From: Achromobacter sp. MFA1 R4 | GTDB lineage: Bacteria > Pseudomonadota > Gammaproteobacteria > Burkholderiales > Burkholderiaceae_B | Assembly (NCBI RefSeq): GCF_900156745.1 | Contig: NZ_LT707065.1 | Location: 3,782,001 to 3,846,000, forward strand | Reading direction: 5' to 3' | Length of the DNA stretch: 64,000 nt | Notes under the pieces: generated by a model | Told to the model about the DNA's origin: nothing | Seen by the model: only the letters and a program-made list of their open reading frames with translations | The model's database searches: none | Translations under genes and position numbers: made by a program | Shown: piece after piece, positions 51,789 through 57,782 of the stretch | How positions within the stretch are numbered: the stretch's first letter is position 1 | Layout: the number at the start of each line of letters is the position of its first letter

Positions 51789-53249
51789 ATGAAAATCATC
51801 GATCCCGCCATTGCATCCCTGGCCACCGCCAAATCCCTTCTGCTCGACCCCTGGGGCCTGACCGAAGCGGACATGGCGCGGGCACTGGGTGAAATCTTCA
51901 CCCACAAGGTCGATTACGCCGACCTGTACTTCCAATACACGCGCAGCGAAGGCTGGAGCCTGGAAGAAGGGATCGTCAAGACGGGCAGCTTTTCCATCAG
52001 CCAGGGCGTGGGCGTGCGGGCCGTCAGCGGAGAAAAAACCGCGTTCGCCTATTCGGATTCCCTGTCGCCCGAGGCGCTGCTGTCCTCGGCGCACGCCGTG
52101 CGCGGCATCGCCCGTCGCGGCGCCGGCAAGGTCAAGGTGGCCGCCCACGTCGAGGCCGAGATCGGCCGCAGCCTTTATGCGGACATTGATCCCGTGGCCA
52201 GCCTGAGCGCGCCCGAGAAAGTCGCGCTGCTGGAGCGCGTCGAGCGCATGGCGCGAGCCCGCGATCCGCATGTGATCCAGGTGATGGCCGGGTTGGGCGC
52301 GGAGTATGACGTGGTGCTCGTCGCGGGCAGCGATGGCCGCCTGGCCGCCGACGTGCGCCCCTTAGTGCGCCTGTCGCTCACCGTGATCGCCGAGCGCAAT
52401 GGCCGTCGCGAAATGGGCCACGCGGGCGGCGGCGGGCGGCTCGGCCTGGCGTACTTCACCGACGACATGCTGCAGGGTTATGTCGAGCGGGCAGTGCACG
52501 AAGCGCTGGTCAATCTTGAGGCGCGTCCGGCGCCTGCCGGCGAAATGACCGTAGTCCTGGGTTCGGGCTGGCCCGGCATCCTGTTGCACGAAGCCGTCGG
52601 CCATGGCCTTGAAGGCGACTTCAACCGCAAGGGTTCCAGCGTGTTCTCCGGCCGCATCGGCGAACGCGTGGCGTCCAAGGGCGTGACGGTGGTCGACGAT
52701 GGCACCATCCCTGATCGCCGCGGTTCGCTCAATATCGACGACGAGGGAAATGCCACCCAGCGCAACGTGCTCATCGAAGACGGCATCCTGCGCGGCTACA
52801 TGCAGGACACGCTCAACGCCCGCCTGATGAAGACCGCCGCCACCGGCAACGGCCGCCGCGAATCCTTTGCGCATCTGCCCATGCCGCGCATGACCAATAC
52901 CTACATGCTGGCGGGCGACAAGCCCGCCGATGAGATCGTGGCCTCGGTCAAGCGTGGCCTTTATGCGGTCAACTTCGGCGGCGGCCAGGTCGACATCACC
53001 AACGGCAAGTTCGTGTTCTCGGCGTCCGAGGCTTACATGATCGAAGATGGCAAAGTGACCTATCCGGTCAAGGGCGCCACGCTCATCGGCAACGGCCCCG
53101 ATGCCATGAACCGCGTCACCATGATCGGCAATGACCTGCAGCTCGACTCCGGCGTGGGCACTTGCGGCAAGGACGGCCAGAGCGTGCCCGTCGGCGTCGG
53201 CATGCCCACCGTCCGCATGGAAGGACTGACGGTCGGCGGCACGGCCTGA
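51789..53249 (+). CDS. tldD: Metalloprotease TldD
   Basis: A 486-aa subunit of the TldD/TldE protease, which trims unfolded peptides and RiPP precursors (microcin B17, CcdA). The zinc motif [11 protein letters not shown] has His267, Glu268, His272; the third ligand is expected further on in the Cys-containing [10 protein letters not shown] region. The partner gene tldE (pmbA) is not adjacent. Full length. Upstream is the large gene-free region; aroG's leader starts 96 bp after its stop. Confidence 0.96.
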
Positions 53250-53308
53250 CGCGGTCCAAAGTGTCCTGAAGCGGTAAATAGGGGGCGGCATGCGGCAAAA
53301 TTGCCAGC

Positions 53309-53337
53309 GTGACGCCCTCAAAAAATTGTGCTAGAGT
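53309..53337 (+). promoter_or_regulatory. Candidate promoter of the aroG leader
   Basis: Extended -10 TGCTAGAGT (53329-53337) with -35-like GTGACG (53309-53314, 17-bp spacer). A start near 53344-53346 would place transcription at or just before the leader ATG. Confidence 0.5.
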
Positions 53338-53345
53338 CTTCTCCC

Positions 53346-53429
53346 ATGAAATTCGCGTCCCCCGCCTTTTATTTTTATTTTTTTGGTTTTCTGAAGCCGC
53401 TGGCGGAGGAAGGGACGCGCTCAATCTGA
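53346..53429 (+). CDS. Phe/Tyr-rich leader peptide of the aroG attenuator
   Basis: A 27-codon ORF encoding MKFASPAFYFYFFGF..., with six Phe and two Tyr in the first fifteen codons. It lies between the promoter and a terminator in front of the DAHP synthase gene. Segment 53362-53366 (CCGCC, in codons just before the Phe/Tyr run) can pair with GGCGG at 53402-53406; alternatively CGCTGGCGG (53398-53406) pairs with the terminator's 5' arm (53457-53465). So stalling on Phe/Tyr codons would free the antiterminator. There is no strong SD; the ATG may be at the mRNA 5' end. Confidence 0.8.
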   Translation: MKFASPAFYFYFFGFLKPLAEEGTRSI

Positions 53430-53455
53430 AGTTTGGAAAGAATCCCCCCAAAAAA

Positions 53456-53482
53456 GCCGCCAGCGAACTGGCGGCTTTTTTT
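53456..53482 (+). terminator. aroG attenuator terminator
   Basis: GCCGCCAG/CTGGCGGC (53456-53463 with 53468-53475), CGAA loop and T7 (53476-53482), 35 bp before the aroG GTG. Its 5' arm is also complementary to the leader segment 53398-53406 (9 bp), the antiterminator. Confidence 0.92.
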
Positions 53483-53516
53483 GTGCCGCCGTGGCGGGCA
53501 AACCAGGAGCAGTACC

Positions 53517-54590
53517 GTGTCACACAACACCGACGATCTTCGCATTCGAGAAATCAAGGAACTGAACCCGCCCTCGCACGTCATGCGCGAGTTCGCCTGC
53601 ACCAAAGAGGCGTCCGAGACCGTGTTCGCCGCCCGGCAGGGCATGCACCGCATCCTGCACGGCATGGACGACCGCATGATCGTCGTGATCGGTCCTTGCT
53701 CCATTCACGACACGCGCGCCGCCATCGAATACGCCAAGCGGCTCAAGCCGGTGCGCGACCGCCTGAGCGCCGACCTGGAAATCGTGATGCGCGTCTACTT
53801 CGAGAAGCCGCGCACCACCGTCGGCTGGAAGGGCCTCATCAATGATCCCGATCTGGACGGCAGCTTCGACATCAATAAGGGGGTGCGCGTGGCCCGCGAG
53901 CTGCTGCTGGACATCAACAGCATGGGCTTGCCGGCGGGATGCGAGTTCCTGGACATGATTACGCCGCAATACATCGCGGATCTGGTCTCCTGGGGGGCGA
54001 TCGGGGCACGCACGACGGAAAGCCAGGTGCACCGCGAGCTGGCTTCGGGCCTGTCGTGTCCGGTGGGGTTCAAGAACGGCACGGACGGCAATGTGAAGAT
54101 CGCGGTCGACGCGATCAAGGCGGCTTCGCAGCCGCATCATTTCCTGTCGGTGACCAAGGGCGGGCATTCCGCCATCGTGTCCACCGCCGGCAATGAGGAC
54201 TGCCACGTGATCCTGCGTGGCGGCAAGACGCCGAACTATGACGCAGCCAGCGTCGATGCGGCTTGCCAGGACGTGTCCAAGGCCGGTCTGGCGCAGCGCA
54301 TCATGGTCGATGCCAGCCACGCCAACAGCAGCAAGAAGCCCGAGAACCAGCCGCTGGTCATCGAAGACGTCGCGCGGCAGATGGAAGCGGGCGACGCCCG
54401 CCTGATCGGCGTCATGGTCGAAAGCCACCTGCTGGGCGGCCGCCAGGACATGGTGCCGGGACAGCCGTTGGTGTACGGCCAGAGCATCACCGATGGCTGC
54501 ATCGACTGGGACGCATCGGTGGCCGTGCTCGAACGCCTGGCGCAGGCCGTGCGTGAGCGCCGCCGGGTGGCGCTGACCTCCGGCAAATGA
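53517..54590 (+). CDS. aroG: 3-deoxy-7-phosphoheptulonate synthase (DAHP synthase, class I)
   Basis: A 357-aa enzyme joining phosphoenolpyruvate and erythrose-4-phosphate, the first step of the shikimate pathway. GTG at 53517 (SD AGGAG, 53504-53508) gives the start MSHNTDDLRIREIKEL. Motifs: VIGPCSIHD, PRTTVGWKGLINDP, GARTTESQVHRE and the metal-binding VDASHANSSKKPENQP. Isoform (Phe- or Tyr-sensitive) is not decided here, but leader codons suggest control by Phe/Tyr supply. The leader with attenuator precedes it; a hairpin (54600-54636) follows. Confidence 0.97.
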   Translation: MSHNTDDLRIREIKELNPPSHVMREFACTKEASETVFAARQGMHRILHGMDDRMIVVIGPCSIHDTRAAIEYAKRLKPVRDRLSADLEIVMRVYFEKPRTTVGWKGLINDPDLDGSFDINKGVRVARELLLDINSMGLPAGCEFLDMITPQYIADLVSWGAIGARTTESQVHRELASGLSCPVGFKNGTDGNVKIAVDAIKAASQPHHFLSVTKGGHSAIVSTAGNEDCHVILRGGKTPNYDAASVDAACQDVSKAGLAQRIMVDASHANSSKKPENQPLVIEDVARQMEAGDARLIGVMVESHLLGGRQDMVPGQPLVYGQSITDGCIDWDASVAVLERLAQAVRERRRVALTSGK

Positions 54591-54692: not shown

Positions 54693-56102
54693 ATGAACGC
54701 TCCCTTGCACGCCGAAACGTTGCGCCGCGCGGTGCCCGCTGCCTGTCTGGATGCCTTGCGCGCGCGCTTTGGCGATCGCCTGTCGGAAACCGCCGCCGTG
54801 CGCGAACACCACGGCCGCGATGAATCGCCTTATCCGGCCATGCTGCCCGATGCCGTGGTCTTTGCGCAGTCGACGGAGGATGTCGCGTACGTCGCCAAGG
54901 TGTGCAATGAACATCGCGTTCCCTTGATTCCCTACGGTGCCGGCTCGTCGCTGGAAGGCCACATCCTGGCGATCCAGGGGGGCATCAGCCTGGACCTGTC
55001 GCAGATGAACAAGGTTCTGGCCATCAACGCAGAAGACCTCACCGCCACGGTGCAGGCGGGCGTGCTGCGCAAGCAGCTCAACGAAGAAATCCGCAACACG
55101 GGCCTCTTCTTCCCGATCGATCCCGGCGCGGACGCCAGCCTCGGCGGCATGGCCGCCACCCGCGCCTCGGGCACCAACGCCGTGCGCTACGGCACGATGC
55201 GCGAGAACGTCATGTCGCTGACCGTCGTCACCGCGGACGGCCGCATCATCCGCACCGCGGGCCGCGCGCGCAAGTCGTCGGCGGGCTATGACCTCACGCG
55301 CATTTTCGTGGGCAGCGAGGGCACGCTCGGCATCATCACCGAAGTCACCGTGCGCTTGTATCCGCAGCCTGAAGCCGTGTCCGCCGCGGTCTGCAATTTC
55401 CCCACGCTGGACGCCGCGGTCCAGAGCGTGATCGAGATCATCCAGATGGGCGTGCCCGTCGCGCGCGTCGAGTTCATGGATGCGGCCAGCGTGCGCGCGG
55501 TGAACCTGCACAGCAAGCTGAGCCTGCGCGAAACCCCGCTGCTGGTGTTTGAATTCCACGGCAGCCCCGCAGGCGTGCAAGAGCAAGCGGAAACCGTGCA
55601 GGCCATCACGGCCGAGCATGGCGGCATGGACTTCGAATGGGCCGAGCGTCCCGAAGACCGCAGCCGCCTCTGGACCGCACGCCACAACGCGTATTTTGCG
55701 GGCCTGCAATTGCGCCCGGGCTGCCGCGCCAGCACCACCGACGTCTGCGTGCCCATCTCGCGCCTGGCCGATTGCGTGCGCGACACGGTCGAGGAACTGG
55801 ATCGCGCCAGCTTTCCCTACACGATCGTGGGCCACGTCGGCGATGGCAATTTCCATGTGCTGATGCTGCTGGATGCCGATAACGCGCAAGAGTGGCAGGA
55901 ATCCGAAACCATCAACCACAACCTCGTGCGCCGCGCCATCGCGGCCGACGGCACCTGCACGGGCGAGCACGGCGTGGGCCTGCACAAGATGCAGTTCATG
56001 GCGGAAGAACACGGCGAAGATGCGCTCGACCTGATGCGCAGTCTCAAGCACGCGTTTGACCCAAACAACATCCTGAATCCCGGCAAGATCGTGTCCTGGT
56101 AG
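54693..56102 (+). CDS. FAD-linked oxidase, D-lactate dehydrogenase (cytochrome)-like
   Basis: A 469-aa flavoprotein of the FAD_binding_4/FAD-oxidase_C family. FAD-binding segments: VPLIPYGAGSSLEGH (about 76-90) and the DPGADASLGGMAATRASG block (about 144-161). The C-terminal GHVGDGNFHVLM (about 385-396) and TGEHGVG motif (about 429) are the metal/active-site region of D-2-hydroxyacid dehydrogenases. It precedes a separate glcD gene with a 180-bp gap, so it may feed on D-lactate while the next operon handles glycolate (inference). Confidence 0.9.
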   Translation: MNAPLHAETLRRAVPAACLDALRARFGDRLSETAAVREHHGRDESPYPAMLPDAVVFAQSTEDVAYVAKVCNEHRVPLIPYGAGSSLEGHILAIQGGISLDLSQMNKVLAINAEDLTATVQAGVLRKQLNEEIRNTGLFFPIDPGADASLGGMAATRASGTNAVRYGTMRENVMSLTVVTADGRIIRTAGRARKSSAGYDLTRIFVGSEGTLGIITEVTVRLYPQPEAVSAAVCNFPTLDAAVQSVIEIIQMGVPVARVEFMDAASVRAVNLHSKLSLRETPLLVFEFHGSPAGVQEQAETVQAITAEHGGMDFEWAERPEDRSRLWTARHNAYFAGLQLRPGCRASTTDVCVPISRLADCVRDTVEELDRASFPYTIVGHVGDGNFHVLMLLDADNAQEWQESETINHNLVRRAIAADGTCTGEHGVGLHKMQFMAEEHGEDALDLMRSLKHAFDPNNILNPGKIVSW

Positions 56103-56282
56103 GACGCCGGCGGGACGGCTCGTCCCGCTTGCATTGCCGCTGGCTTGCGGCTTTTCTGCGACAGGCCGCTACGGGGTTTACGGCTGGTTACGTATGCGTC
56201 GGCCGCGATGCCCTTTAGCGCCCGGAAGGTGCGGGTAAATCCCGGCCTGTTTATCGTGGGCACACGCGCTATTGTTGCGCTC

Positions 56283-57782
56283 ATGAATTCACTGGTCGAA
56301 ACTGGCCTGGCACAAGTGCAGGCGCCTTATTCGCTGCAGCAGCTCGTCGAGGCGTTGTCGGCCGCGTTGCCCGCGCACTGTGTGCTCTATCGCGAAGAAG
56401 ACACGCGTCCTTACGAGTGCGATGGCCTATCCCTTTACCGCGCGGTTCCGGCCGTCGTGGCCTTGCCTGAAACCGAAGAGCAGGTGCAGGCCGTCATGCG
56501 CATCTGCAAGCGGCTGAACGCACCCATCGTTGCGCGGGGCGCCGGAACGGGTCTGTCGGGCGGCGCCATGCCGCACACCCGGGGCGTGCTGCTCGGGCTG
56601 TCCAAGTTCAATCGCATCAAACACATCGATCTGGCCAGCGCGACCGCCATCGTGCAGCCCGGCGTGCGCAATCTCGCTATCTCGGAAGCCGTGTCGCCCT
56701 ACGGCCTGTACTACGCGCCGGACCCGTCCAGCCAGATCGCATGTTCCATCGGCGGCAACGTCGCCGAGAACTCCGGCGGCGTGCATTGCCTCAAGTACGG
56801 CCTTACCGTGCACAACGTGCTGCGCGTGCGCGTGGTCACGATCGACGGCGACGTGGTCGAGCTGGGATCGGAGGCGCCCGATGCGCCGGGCCTGGATTTG
56901 CTGTCGGTCTTTGTCGGATCCGAGGGCATGCTGGGCGTGGTGACCGAAGTCACCGTCAAGCTGATTCCCAAGCCCGCCTGCGCGCAGGTCGTCATGGCCA
57001 GCTTTTCCAGCGTCGAGGCGGCCGGCAACGCGGTCACGCAGGTGATCGCGGCAGGCATGATCCCGGCCGGGCTGGAAATGATGGACCGCCGCGCCACGCA
57101 CATGGTCGAACCTTTCGTGCGCGCGGGCTACGACATGGACGCGCAGGCCATCCTGCTGTGCGAATCGGATGGCACGCCTGAAGAGGTGGCGCATGAAATC
57201 GCGCGCATGGAAGCGGTATTCCGCGACGCCGGCGCCACGCGTTGCCAGGTGTCCACCTCCGAGGCCGAACGCCTGAAATTCTGGGCGGGGCGCAAGAATG
57301 CGTTTCCCGCCGCCGGGCGCGTGTCGCCCGATTACTACTGCATGGACGGCACCATACCGCGCCGCCATCTGGCGCGCGTGCTGGGCGCCATCGAGCAAAT
57401 GGAAGACGAATTCGGTCTGCGATGCGCCAACGTCTTTCATGCCGGCGACGGCAATCTGCATCCGCTGATCCTGTTCGATTCGAATAAGCCGGACGAGGTG
57501 GAGCGCGCCGAGAAATTCGGCGCCGCCATTCTCGAGCTGTGCGTGCAGGTGGGAGGAACCGTGACTGGAGAGCACGGTGTGGGAATGGAGAAGATAAATC
57601 AAATGTGCGTGCAATTCTCTCGCGAAGAACTCGACGCGTTTCTGGCGGTAAAGCGGGCCTTCGATCCGCCGTGCCTGCTCAATCCTGAAAAAGTCATCCC
57701 AACGCTGGCCCGCTGCGCCGAATACGGCAAGATGCACGTCCATGCGGGAGAACTGCGCTTCCCCGATCTCGCCCGTTTCTAG
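56283..57782 (+). CDS. glcD: Glycolate oxidase subunit GlcD
   Basis: A 499-aa FAD catalytic subunit of glycolate dehydrogenase. It has VARGAGTGLSGGAMPH (about 87-102), the SSQIACSIGGNVAENSGGVHC block (about 150-170) and the C-terminal NVFHAGDGNLHPLILFD and TVTGEHGVGMEKIN. The Met at 56283 is chosen; the open frame begins earlier without homology. glcE starts 12 bp later and glcF 6 bp after that, an operon encoding the GlcDEF complex. The regulator glcC is absent. Confidence 0.96.
   Translation: MNSLVETGLAQVQAPYSLQQLVEALSAALPAHCVLYREEDTRPYECDGLSLYRAVPAVVALPETEEQVQAVMRICKRLNAPIVARGAGTGLSGGAMPHTRGVLLGLSKFNRIKHIDLASATAIVQPGVRNLAISEAVSPYGLYYAPDPSSQIACSIGGNVAENSGGVHCLKYGLTVHNVLRVRVVTIDGDVVELGSEAPDAPGLDLLSVFVGSEGMLGVVTEVTVKLIPKPACAQVVMASFSSVEAAGNAVTQVIAAGMIPAGLEMMDRRATHMVEPFVRAGYDMDAQAILLCESDGTPEEVAHEIARMEAVFRDAGATRCQVSTSEAERLKFWAGRKNAFPAAGRVSPDYYCMDGTIPRRHLARVLGAIEQMEDEFGLRCANVFHAGDGNLHPLILFDSNKPDEVERAEKFGAAILELCVQVGGTVTGEHGVGMEKINQMCVQFSREELDAFLAVKRAFDPPCLLNPEKVIPTLARCAEYGKMHVHAGELRFPDLARF

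What the first reader, a model, noticed from the sequence alone, without database searches (positions are those of the whole stretch)
53309..53516. Phe/Tyr-codon attenuator in front of the DAHP synthase gene aroG
Seen: a 27-codon leader ORF (53346-53429) with AFYFYFFGF, a terminator (53456-53482, T7) 35 bp before aroG, and CGCTGGCGG (53398-53406) perfectly complementary over 9 bp to the terminator 5' arm (53457-53465). A third segment, CCGCC (53362-53366), can sequester GGCGG (53402-53406). The geometry fits ribosome stalling: a ribosome on the Phe/Tyr run masks segment 1 and frees segment 2 to pair with 3. Known: E. coli pheA uses such control, but its DAHP synthase genes are regulated at the promoter by TyrR/TrpR. 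Attenuation of aroG by a mixed Phe+Tyr leader would be a distinct regulatory solution; I cannot tell whether it has been described for this lineage.
Basis: partly seen in the sequence, partly recalled or inferred. Interest (0 to 1): 0.9.

Follow-up and report, generated by a model that had tools for sequence, protein, structure and literature searches.

The report
Aromatic-codon attenuator before aroG
A short RNA switch in front of the first gene of aromatic amino-acid synthesis appears to let ribosomes that stall on phenylalanine and tyrosine codons turn the gene on, and related switches are found before the same gene in many alpha-, beta- and gamma-proteobacteria.

Summary
The element lies before this DAHP synthase in 149 of 176 upstream regions, 148 at score 12 or more, against 0 of 880 shuffles, and before 0 of 17 second DAHPS copies. 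The three alternative helices show covariation. After hits beside DAHPS, the two best phylum hits of a model of the element are the pheST and pheA leaders. Two additions: in alpha-, Xanthomonadaceae- and Comamonadaceae-like genomes the run holds Phe, Tyr and Trp codons in 35 of 36, and the promoter position predicts that the window's leader RNA begins at or a few bases before its AUG. Attenuation of a DAHPS gene is known in Corynebacterium (aroR-aroF). Ten paper searches, with cut listings, showed no report of this proteobacterial element; at the site Rfam 15 gives only sub-threshold matches. New variant of a known kind.

The parts
53329..53337 (+). extended -10-like promoter element TGCTAGAGT, 8 nt before the leader AUG
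   Evidence: sequence; TANNNT 5-9 nt before ATG in 40 of 44 non-redundant family elements, 38 with TGN in front; control windows further up 0-3
53343..53346 (+). predicted transcription start, at or just before the leader AUG (leaderless or nearly so)
   Evidence: inference from -10 spacing; not mapped
53346..53429 (+). leader peptide ORF, MKFASPAFYFYFFGFLKPLAEEGTRSI*
53367..53390 (+). regulatory codons Phe-Tyr-Phe-Tyr-Phe-Phe-Gly-Phe; the aromatic ones all TTT and TAT
   Evidence: sequence; conservation and frame counts
53354..53366 (+). segment 1 (A): pairs 53412-53419 and 53402-53406
53398..53419 (+). segment 2 (B): 53398-53406 is the antiterminator 5' arm; 53402-53406 and 53412-53419 pair segment 1
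53456..53465 (+). segment 3 (C): terminator 5' arm (53456-53463) and antiterminator 3' arm (53457-53465)
53450..53482 (+). intrinsic terminator (segments 3:4), A6-stem-CGAA-stem-T7
   Evidence: not listed by the consensus scanner
53505..53509 (+). Shine-Dalgarno-like AGGAG of aroG
   Evidence: sequence
53517..54590 (+). aroG, 3-deoxy-7-phosphoheptulonate (DAHP) synthase
   Evidence: NCBIfam NF006723 AroG 585.5 bits, cut-off 568; solved relatives 5cks, 1gg1 named Phe-sensitive or Phe-regulated
51789..53249 (+). upstream neighbour tldD (metalloprotease TldD), not part of the switch
   Evidence: NCBIfam NF008006 668 bits, cut-off 513

Best explanation
It is a ribosome-mediated transcription attenuator of aroG. 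Transcription starts at or a few bases before the leader AUG (inferred). If charged Phe- and Tyr-tRNA are plentiful the ribosome runs through the Phe/Tyr codons, segments 1 and 2 pair, segment 3 is free to pair with 4, and RNA polymerase stops near 53476-53482. If either is scarce the ribosome stalls on 53367-53390 over segment 1, segment 2 (53398-53406) pairs with segment 3 (53457-53465), the terminator cannot form in time and aroG is transcribed. Shown: the ORF, the three alternative helices (2:3 excludes 1:2 and 3:4), their conservation and covariation, the near-constant spacing from the aromatic run to segment 2, and the link to one DAHPS type. Inferred: stalling, termination in vivo, response to Phe and Tyr.
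For: Element before DAHPS in 149 of 176 upstream regions (window included), 148 at score 12 or more; 880 shuffles: 13 any, 0 at 12 or more. Second DAHPS copies: 0 of 17 (L002; L181-L196). Covariation score against the best slid control: 1:2 0.244 vs 0.144, 2:3 0.173 vs 0.055, 3:4 0.101 vs 0.052 (44 sequences). Cognate 2:3 pairing exceeds all 10,000 permuted pairings in both sets; 1:2 in the family set. Aromatic codons in frame 0/+1/+2: 308/163/151 in the family set, 100/15/17 in the alpha-like set. Segment 2 starts 5-16 nt after the last aromatic codon in four lineage groups and 5-20 in the rest. Model R1: window 109 bits; next is 28.1 bits for the same terminator on the other strand, best elsewhere in the genome 26.9; 123 of 142 listed DAHPS genomes of the family have a hit 16-155 nt upstream, 81 of the 100 that gave no row to the model, many of these close relatives of rows. 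After the 35 hits with E below 1e-7 in 299 phylum genomes, the next two are pheST and pheA leaders. With 53346-53390 masked and segment 4 not yet made, P(2:3)=1.00.
Against: No expression data. In helix 1:2 only 67.3% of cells pair, and its number of pairs with two-sided change (10) is matched by one slid control; for 3:4 the cells with two-sided change (9) are matched by one slid control. RNAalifold found the terminator but not 1:2. At equilibrium the complete RNA prefers the terminator in every masking case, so the switch must be kinetic. Without a ribosome, 2:3 outcompetes 1:2 for a short interval (P 0.85-0.89 at RNA ends 53466-53470). In my footprint model a ribosome at the stop codon leaves 53398-53406 uncovered, so basal read-through depends on 1:2 re-forming. 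A ribosome at the last Phe codon (F15) partly covers segment 2 (P(2:3) 0.34-0.39). Outside the family set the 1:2 swap test is not significant (835 of 10,000 permutations as good). 19 of 142 family genomes have no adjacent hit (one of them, G072, is a contig break).
Confidence: 0.9

Rival explanations
1. The hairpin is only the terminator of the upstream tldD transcript, and the short ORF and the complementarities are incidental.
For: tldD ends at 53249 on the same strand and the scanner listed no terminator in 53200-53560. I did not check which gene lies upstream in the relatives.
Against: The aromatic run, segment 2 and terminator are kept together before DAHPS in 149 of 176 regions; a -10-like element sits at near-fixed distance before the leader ORF; pair 82-169 of A1, where segment 2 reaches a base in the terminator loop of the window, keeps pairing in 41 of 44 with two-sided changes in 4.
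Confidence: 0.03
2. The main product is the terminated 130-140-nt RNA or the peptide acting in trans, as described for rnTrpL/peTrpL of Sinorhizobium meliloti, with aroG control secondary.
For: The predicted leaderless start and early termination resemble the trpL RNA of S. meliloti (PMC7298713, PMC10117765, passages read). The peptide end PLAEEG or a near form recurs in many family and Xanthomonadaceae leaders.
Against: That peptide stretch is encoded by segment 2, so RNA pairing can explain its conservation; 1:2, 2:3 and 3:4 all covary, and the element stays next to DAHPS. The roles are not exclusive.
Confidence: 0.05
3. Translation of the leader controls aroG by another route (Rho-dependent termination or translational coupling), not by the intrinsic terminator switch.
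For: uORF control with Rho is described in S. meliloti and, cited there, in Bordetella (PMC12218461, passages read).
Against: A strong intrinsic terminator with T7 and a conserved competing antiterminator is present; aroG has its own AGGAG and begins 87 nt after the leader stop.
Confidence: 0.02

Closest known systems
Corynebacterium glutamicum aroR-aroF attenuator (Neshat et al. 2014, as told in PMC11802643, passages read; the primary paper not read)
   Same: Leader peptide with Phe and Tyr codons before a DAHP synthase gene; ribosome stalling raises transcription.
   Different: Actinobacterium; Phe-Tyr-Phe; reported to respond to Phe but not to Tyr. Its sequence was not compared here. The present elements have 4-9 aromatic codons in a 9-codon stretch (by the detector's own minimum of 4), occur in three proteobacterial classes, often hold Trp codons and are predicted leaderless in the window's family.
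pheL-pheA and pheM-pheST leaders of enterobacteria (Rfam RF01859 Phe_leader)
   Same: Phe-rich leader, alternative hairpins, terminator; model R1 finds them weakly.
   Different: Target genes differ; Phe-dominated; the window scores 25.1 bits against a gathering score of 55, L259 120.8 and L258 73.9.
Leaderless trpL attenuator of Sinorhizobium meliloti (PMC7298713, PMC10117765, passages read)
   Same: Leader mRNA beginning at the AUG of the leader ORF; attenuation.
   Different: Trp codons, trpE(G) target; its start is reported there, the one here only predicted.
aroF/aroH 5'UTR RNA predictions in Shewanella (PMC2659441, passages read, citing Camakaris 1980 on E. coli aroF-tyrA)
   Same: An attenuator sensing Tyr-tRNA is noted for a proteobacterial DAHPS gene (aroF).
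   Different: No aromatic leader ORF described for it in the passages seen. I found no leader before L080 (Enterovibrio), L082 (Photobacterium), L180 and L197-L200 (unnamed, taken as enteric- or Vibrio-like): 0 of 7. Shewanella itself was not examined.

Membership tests
ribosome-mediated (leader-peptide) transcription attenuators | short translated ORF with a run of codons for the pathway's end product | tested here: met
   ORF and run conserved in frame; translation itself not shown
ribosome-mediated (leader-peptide) transcription attenuators | intrinsic terminator before the structural gene | tested here: met
   consensus scanner did not list it
ribosome-mediated (leader-peptide) transcription attenuators | mutually exclusive antiterminator, supported by covariation | tested here: met
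ribosome-mediated (leader-peptide) transcription attenuators | 1:2 anti-antiterminator helix | tested here: met
   for the window's family; 67.3% of cells paired; swap test not significant in the other set (835 of 10,000)
ribosome-mediated (leader-peptide) transcription attenuators | read-through rises when the cognate amino acid is scarce | not testable with these tools
   needs reporters or RNA-seq
Rfam RF01859 Phe_leader | score at or above the gathering threshold of 55 bits | tested here: not met
   25.1 bits; no match at E 0.001 in the own genome
C. glutamicum aroR-aroF attenuator | Phe/Tyr leader before a DAHPS gene | tested here: met
   gene identity, leader; shows the same kind of arrangement, not descent
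C. glutamicum aroR-aroF attenuator | common descent of the RNA elements | not tested
   the aroR sequence was not fetched
leaderless trpL-type leader | -10 element placed so that transcription would start at the AUG, no Shine-Dalgarno | tested here: met
   window and family: 40 of 44; spacing only. 13 of 44 hold an SD-like 4-mer, several of these inside the -10 itself
leaderless trpL-type leader | mapped transcription start at the AUG | not testable with these tools
   needs 5' end mapping

The most novel reading that the evidence does not exclude
One ancient, often leaderless RNA switch gates entry into the shikimate pathway in several families of alpha-, beta- and gamma-proteobacteria by reading the charging of aromatic tRNAs (Phe, Tyr and, in many lineages, Trp) in a single run of codons, so that shortage of any one product opens the common first step. 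It would be the counterpart of the TyrR/TrpR-controlled isozymes of E. coli.
Probability: 0.5. Interest if true: 0.75.

Novelty: new variant of a known kind. Interest (0 to 1): 0.62.

Why it matters
DAHP synthase sets the flux into all aromatic amino acids. Its textbook control in proteobacteria is the E. coli one (promoter repressors plus three isozymes). A conserved attenuator in other proteobacteria would mean that translation, not a repressor, is the sensor there; that one leader reads two or three amino acids at once; and that 5' regions before many DAHPS genes are explained. It gives a ready test of how one leader integrates several tRNA signals, and of how attenuation works from a leaderless start.

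Tried and rejected
Rfam: at the site a sub-threshold Phe_leader match on the + strand and a chance match to STnc310 on the other strand; rejected as membership. TyrR and TrpR: Pfam PF18024 and PF01371 (accessions recalled) each gave one borderline hit in the own genome; the reading frames there look like a LysR-type and a LuxR-type regulator (my reading), so no TyrR or TrpR was found, but two short models are weak evidence of absence. I looked for a link between Trp codons and the lack of a second DAHPS: none visible (6 of 7 Comamonadaceae-like genomes have a second DAHPS match, and all 7 leaders hold Trp). The promoter/terminator scanner gave nothing. RNAalifold on A1 returned the terminator and a small hairpin in segment 2, not helix 1:2. 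Of 19 further R1 hits in the own genome I opened three (L268-L270): L268 and L269 without an aromatic leader, L270 with a weak chance ORF. Of the 29 phylum hits weaker than 1e-7 I opened ten: four Phe leaders, one trpL-like leader, five chance (L261, L263, L265-L267); 19 were not opened. Rows dropped: before the 176, L002 (paralog), L094 (same place as L003), L044 and L067 (short flanks); 159 elements (151 plus 8) were thinned to 114 as near-duplicates; five of 114 (length over 140 or odd fit) were left out of alignment A2. The detector gives a bonus for ATG, so the ATG count is biased.

Full report
WHAT IS THERE. The window is bases 3,782,001-3,846,000 of a one-contig 6.2-Mb genome of an unnamed species. 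A named record in its family, of another genus, is Bordetella genomosp. 2: contig length and range equal those of G081 (L003 and L094 are the same place). I therefore take the family to be Alcaligenaceae, with Achromobacter as a guess for the genus; no tool named it. Between tldD (51789-53249) and aroG (53517-54590; NCBIfam AroG model 585.5 bits, cut-off 568) lies a 27-codon ORF with the run FYFYFFGF, then a terminator with T7. The coordinates in the finding are right.

CHANCE. I wrote a detector for an ORF with at least 4 Phe/Tyr/Trp in 9 codons, followed by an intrinsic terminator, with a segment complementary to the terminator 5' arm. The window scores 17.0; in 1000 dinucleotide shuffles of its 400-base upstream region two gave any candidate, the best 11.05. 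Of 180 loci (window included) the element was found in 151. After dropping the paralog L002, the duplicate L094 and two with short flanks, 149 of 176 have it, 148 with score 12 or more; of 880 shuffles of these regions 13 gave any candidate and none reached 12. The 176 are relatives of unequal closeness, not independent draws. As a natural control, 17 second DAHPS copies (L002; L181-L196) have none. Four enteric- or Vibrio-like genes (L197-L200, my label) have none, 7 of 7 best hits of the family f2 that I take for Comamonadaceae have it (L201-L207), and of 13 further loci (L208-L220) one has it.

STRUCTURE. Helix 2:3 excludes both 1:2 and 3:4. In an alignment of 44 non-redundant family elements (A1) each of the three helices has a higher covariation score than its slid controls: 1:2 0.244 against at most 0.144, 2:3 0.173 against at most 0.055, 3:4 0.101 against at most 0.052. 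On other measures the margin is smaller: 1:2 pairs in 67.3% of cells, one slid control has as many pairs with two-sided change (10), and for 3:4 one slid control has as many cells with two-sided change (9). Pair 82-169 of the 2:3 helix reaches a base that lies in the window's terminator loop, where the terminator sets no pairing constraint, and keeps pairing in 41 of 44. Helix 1:2 changes its sequence but can keep pairing: CGCGTCCC/GGGACGCG in the window, ACGCTTCC/GGAAGCGT in L108, GCGTATCC/GGATACGC in L135, TGTACAGC/GCTGTACA in L140, CTGTGTCT/GGACACAG in L142. In a partner-swap test cognate 2:3 pairing was better than all 10,000 permutations in the family set (44) and in the other set (70). 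Cognate 1:2 pairing was better than all permutations in the family set but not in the other set (835 of 10,000 as good). The three helices have similar energies (-23.7, -21.1, -22.1 kcal/mol). With 53346-53390 masked as by a stalled ribosome and RNA made up to 53466-53470, 2:3 forms with probability 1.00 (0.34-0.39 if the ribosome is at the last Phe codon F15). In the finished RNA the terminator wins in every case, so the decision must be kinetic. RNAalifold on A1 predicted the terminator and a small hairpin in segment 2, and the single-sequence fold of 53344-53516 shows the terminator but not helix 1:2.

CODONS. In the family set the run averages 4.9 Phe, 1.9 Tyr and 0.2 Trp; 43 of 44 hold both Phe and Tyr, 6 hold Trp. 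All three residues occur in 19 of 20 alpha-like, 9 of 9 Xanthomonadaceae-like, 7 of 7 Comamonadaceae-like and 12 of 34 remaining elements (groups assigned by me from record titles and leader likeness). Aromatic codons are commonest in frame 0 (frames 0/+1/+2: 308/163/151; alpha-like 100/15/17), so it is not only a U-rich tract. The window's run uses TTT and TAT alone, while its aroG has TTT 0, TTC 7, TAT 1, TAC 4. Segment 2 starts 5-16 nt after the last aromatic codon in the four named lineage groups and 5-20 nt in the rest.

START. TANNNT stands 5-9 nt before the ATG in 40 of 44 family elements, 38 with TGN in front; five-base control windows further up give 0-3. Comamonadaceae-like: 7 of 7. 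In the alpha-like set TANNNT itself is there in 2 of 20, but TGACA begins at -35 or -34 in 14 of 20 and [CGT]TA at -14 or -13 in 17 of 20; in the Xanthomonadaceae-like set (9) TANNNT is there in 1 and [CGT]TA at -16 to -14 is counted 8 times. For the window and its family this places the transcription start at, or within a few bases of, the leader AUG; for the alpha-like set it is likely, for the Xanthomonadaceae-like set weaker. In the remaining elements TANNNT stands there in 5 of 33, and -10-like hexamers lie further up, so those leaders probably have a short 5' UTR. A Shine-Dalgarno-like 4-mer is found in 13 of 44, 0 of 20, 0 of 9, 0 of 7 and 1 of 34; several of the 13 are inside the -10 element TAGGAT. 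A leaderless attenuator has a precedent, trpL of S. meliloti (PMC7298713, PMC10117765, passages).

DISTRIBUTION. A covariance model R1 from 109 elements gives 109 bits at the window; the next hit, 28.1 bits, is the same terminator on the other strand, and the best elsewhere in the genome 26.9. In 299 genomes of the phylum, 172 of which have a DAHPS match at 1e-60, 54 have an R1 match at 1e-3; 35 hits have E below 1e-7, and by eye all 35 lie just upstream of the DAHPS hit on the same strand. 22 of the 35 are rows of the model, 13 are not. By family code, of genomes with a DAHPS match: f2 7 of 7, f14 4 of 4, f42 6 of 6, f45 10 of 10, f5 3 of 6; no hit below 1e-7 in f33 or f15. So the element is widespread but far from universal. 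In 151 family genomes 126 have a hit at 1e-5. Of 146 with a DAHPS match I had coordinates for 142: 123 have the hit 16-155 nt upstream, including 81 of the 100 that are not rows of the model (many are close relatives of rows). Of the 19 without, one (G072) is a contig break with the element at another contig's end. Both large scans used stricter filters that lose some weak matches. Of the 29 phylum hits weaker than 1e-7 I opened ten: the two best are a pheST leader [14 protein letters not shown] (L258) and a pheA leader MKLFPFFFAFFFTFP (L259); two more are pheST leaders (L260, L262), one is trpL-like (L264), five are chance (L261, L263, L265-L267). The names pheM and pheL are recalled; the gene assignments pheST, pheA and trpL are my reading of the frames; Rfam calls L258 and L259 Phe_leader.

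REGULATORS. Pfam models for TyrR's HTH and for TrpR (accessions recalled) gave one borderline hit each in the own genome, in frames that look like LysR-type and LuxR-type regulators. This agrees with control by attenuation instead of TyrR/TrpR but is not proof of absence.

WHAT IS KNOWN. Ten searches of the held PubMed Central library (one search was on trpL), five of them with listings cut to 12-25 rows of 22-259. Closest: C. glutamicum aroR-aroF, Phe-Tyr-Phe leader, responding to Phe and not to Tyr (PMC11802643, passages; the primary paper Neshat 2014 not read). A Shewanella screen lists aroF with 'Attenuator sensing tyr-tRNA', citing Camakaris 1980 (PMC2659441, passages). The main text of Naville and Gautheret 2010 does not hold the words aroG, aroF or phenylalanine (PMC2965389). 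Vitreschak 2004, a comparative survey in proteobacteria, I saw only as a reference; from recall its abstract does not name DAHPS. A Bordetella pertussis sRNA paper (PMC3110155) was seen in a listing only. So I found no report of this element, within that library and those listings.

VERDICT. The mechanism is of a known kind; the element is a widespread variant that I did not find described, with two or three amino acids read by one leader and a predicted leaderless start. Function in vivo remains to be shown.

Noticed in passing
L271 (G004:C1:1193240-1196000), ORF 283-375, terminator about 394-420: A second full copy of the aroG leader in G004 (R1 E 2.0e-17), followed by aroG-like first codons (VSHN) and then a frame that looks like the later part of mnmA (tRNA thiouridylase, my reading). 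The other four non-adjacent family hits lie at contig ends or where no DAHPS row was listed.
   Followed up: partly
window 53484-53500: A second short inverted repeat (GCCGCC GTGGCGG) right before the aroG Shine-Dalgarno; in the full-length fold this stretch pairs with upstream sequence.
   Followed up: no
genera g26 (5 of 6 genomes), g7 (6 of 6), g22 (5 of 6), g14 (1 of 1) of the family: Genomes with a listed DAHPS but no R1 hit at 1e-5 next to it; g7 has 0.7-0.8-Mb genomes. Loss of the switch in reduced genomes is possible; the g26 genomes mostly have a second DAHPS match.
   Followed up: no
L264 (G415:C68): A trpL-like leader MNIGNWWWARFARP with a GCCGCC-type terminator, found weakly by the aroG leader model.
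   Followed up: no
L063: A MAG named Anaerolineae holds a DAHPS 69% identical to the window's, with an aromatic ORF (MSRYFSFFSWYGYF...) upstream but no terminator by my detector; possible binning error.
   Followed up: no
window 54693-56102 and 56145-57782: Two neighbouring GlcD-like FAD-linked oxidases downstream of aroG, both below the NCBIfam GlcD cut-offs.
   Followed up: no
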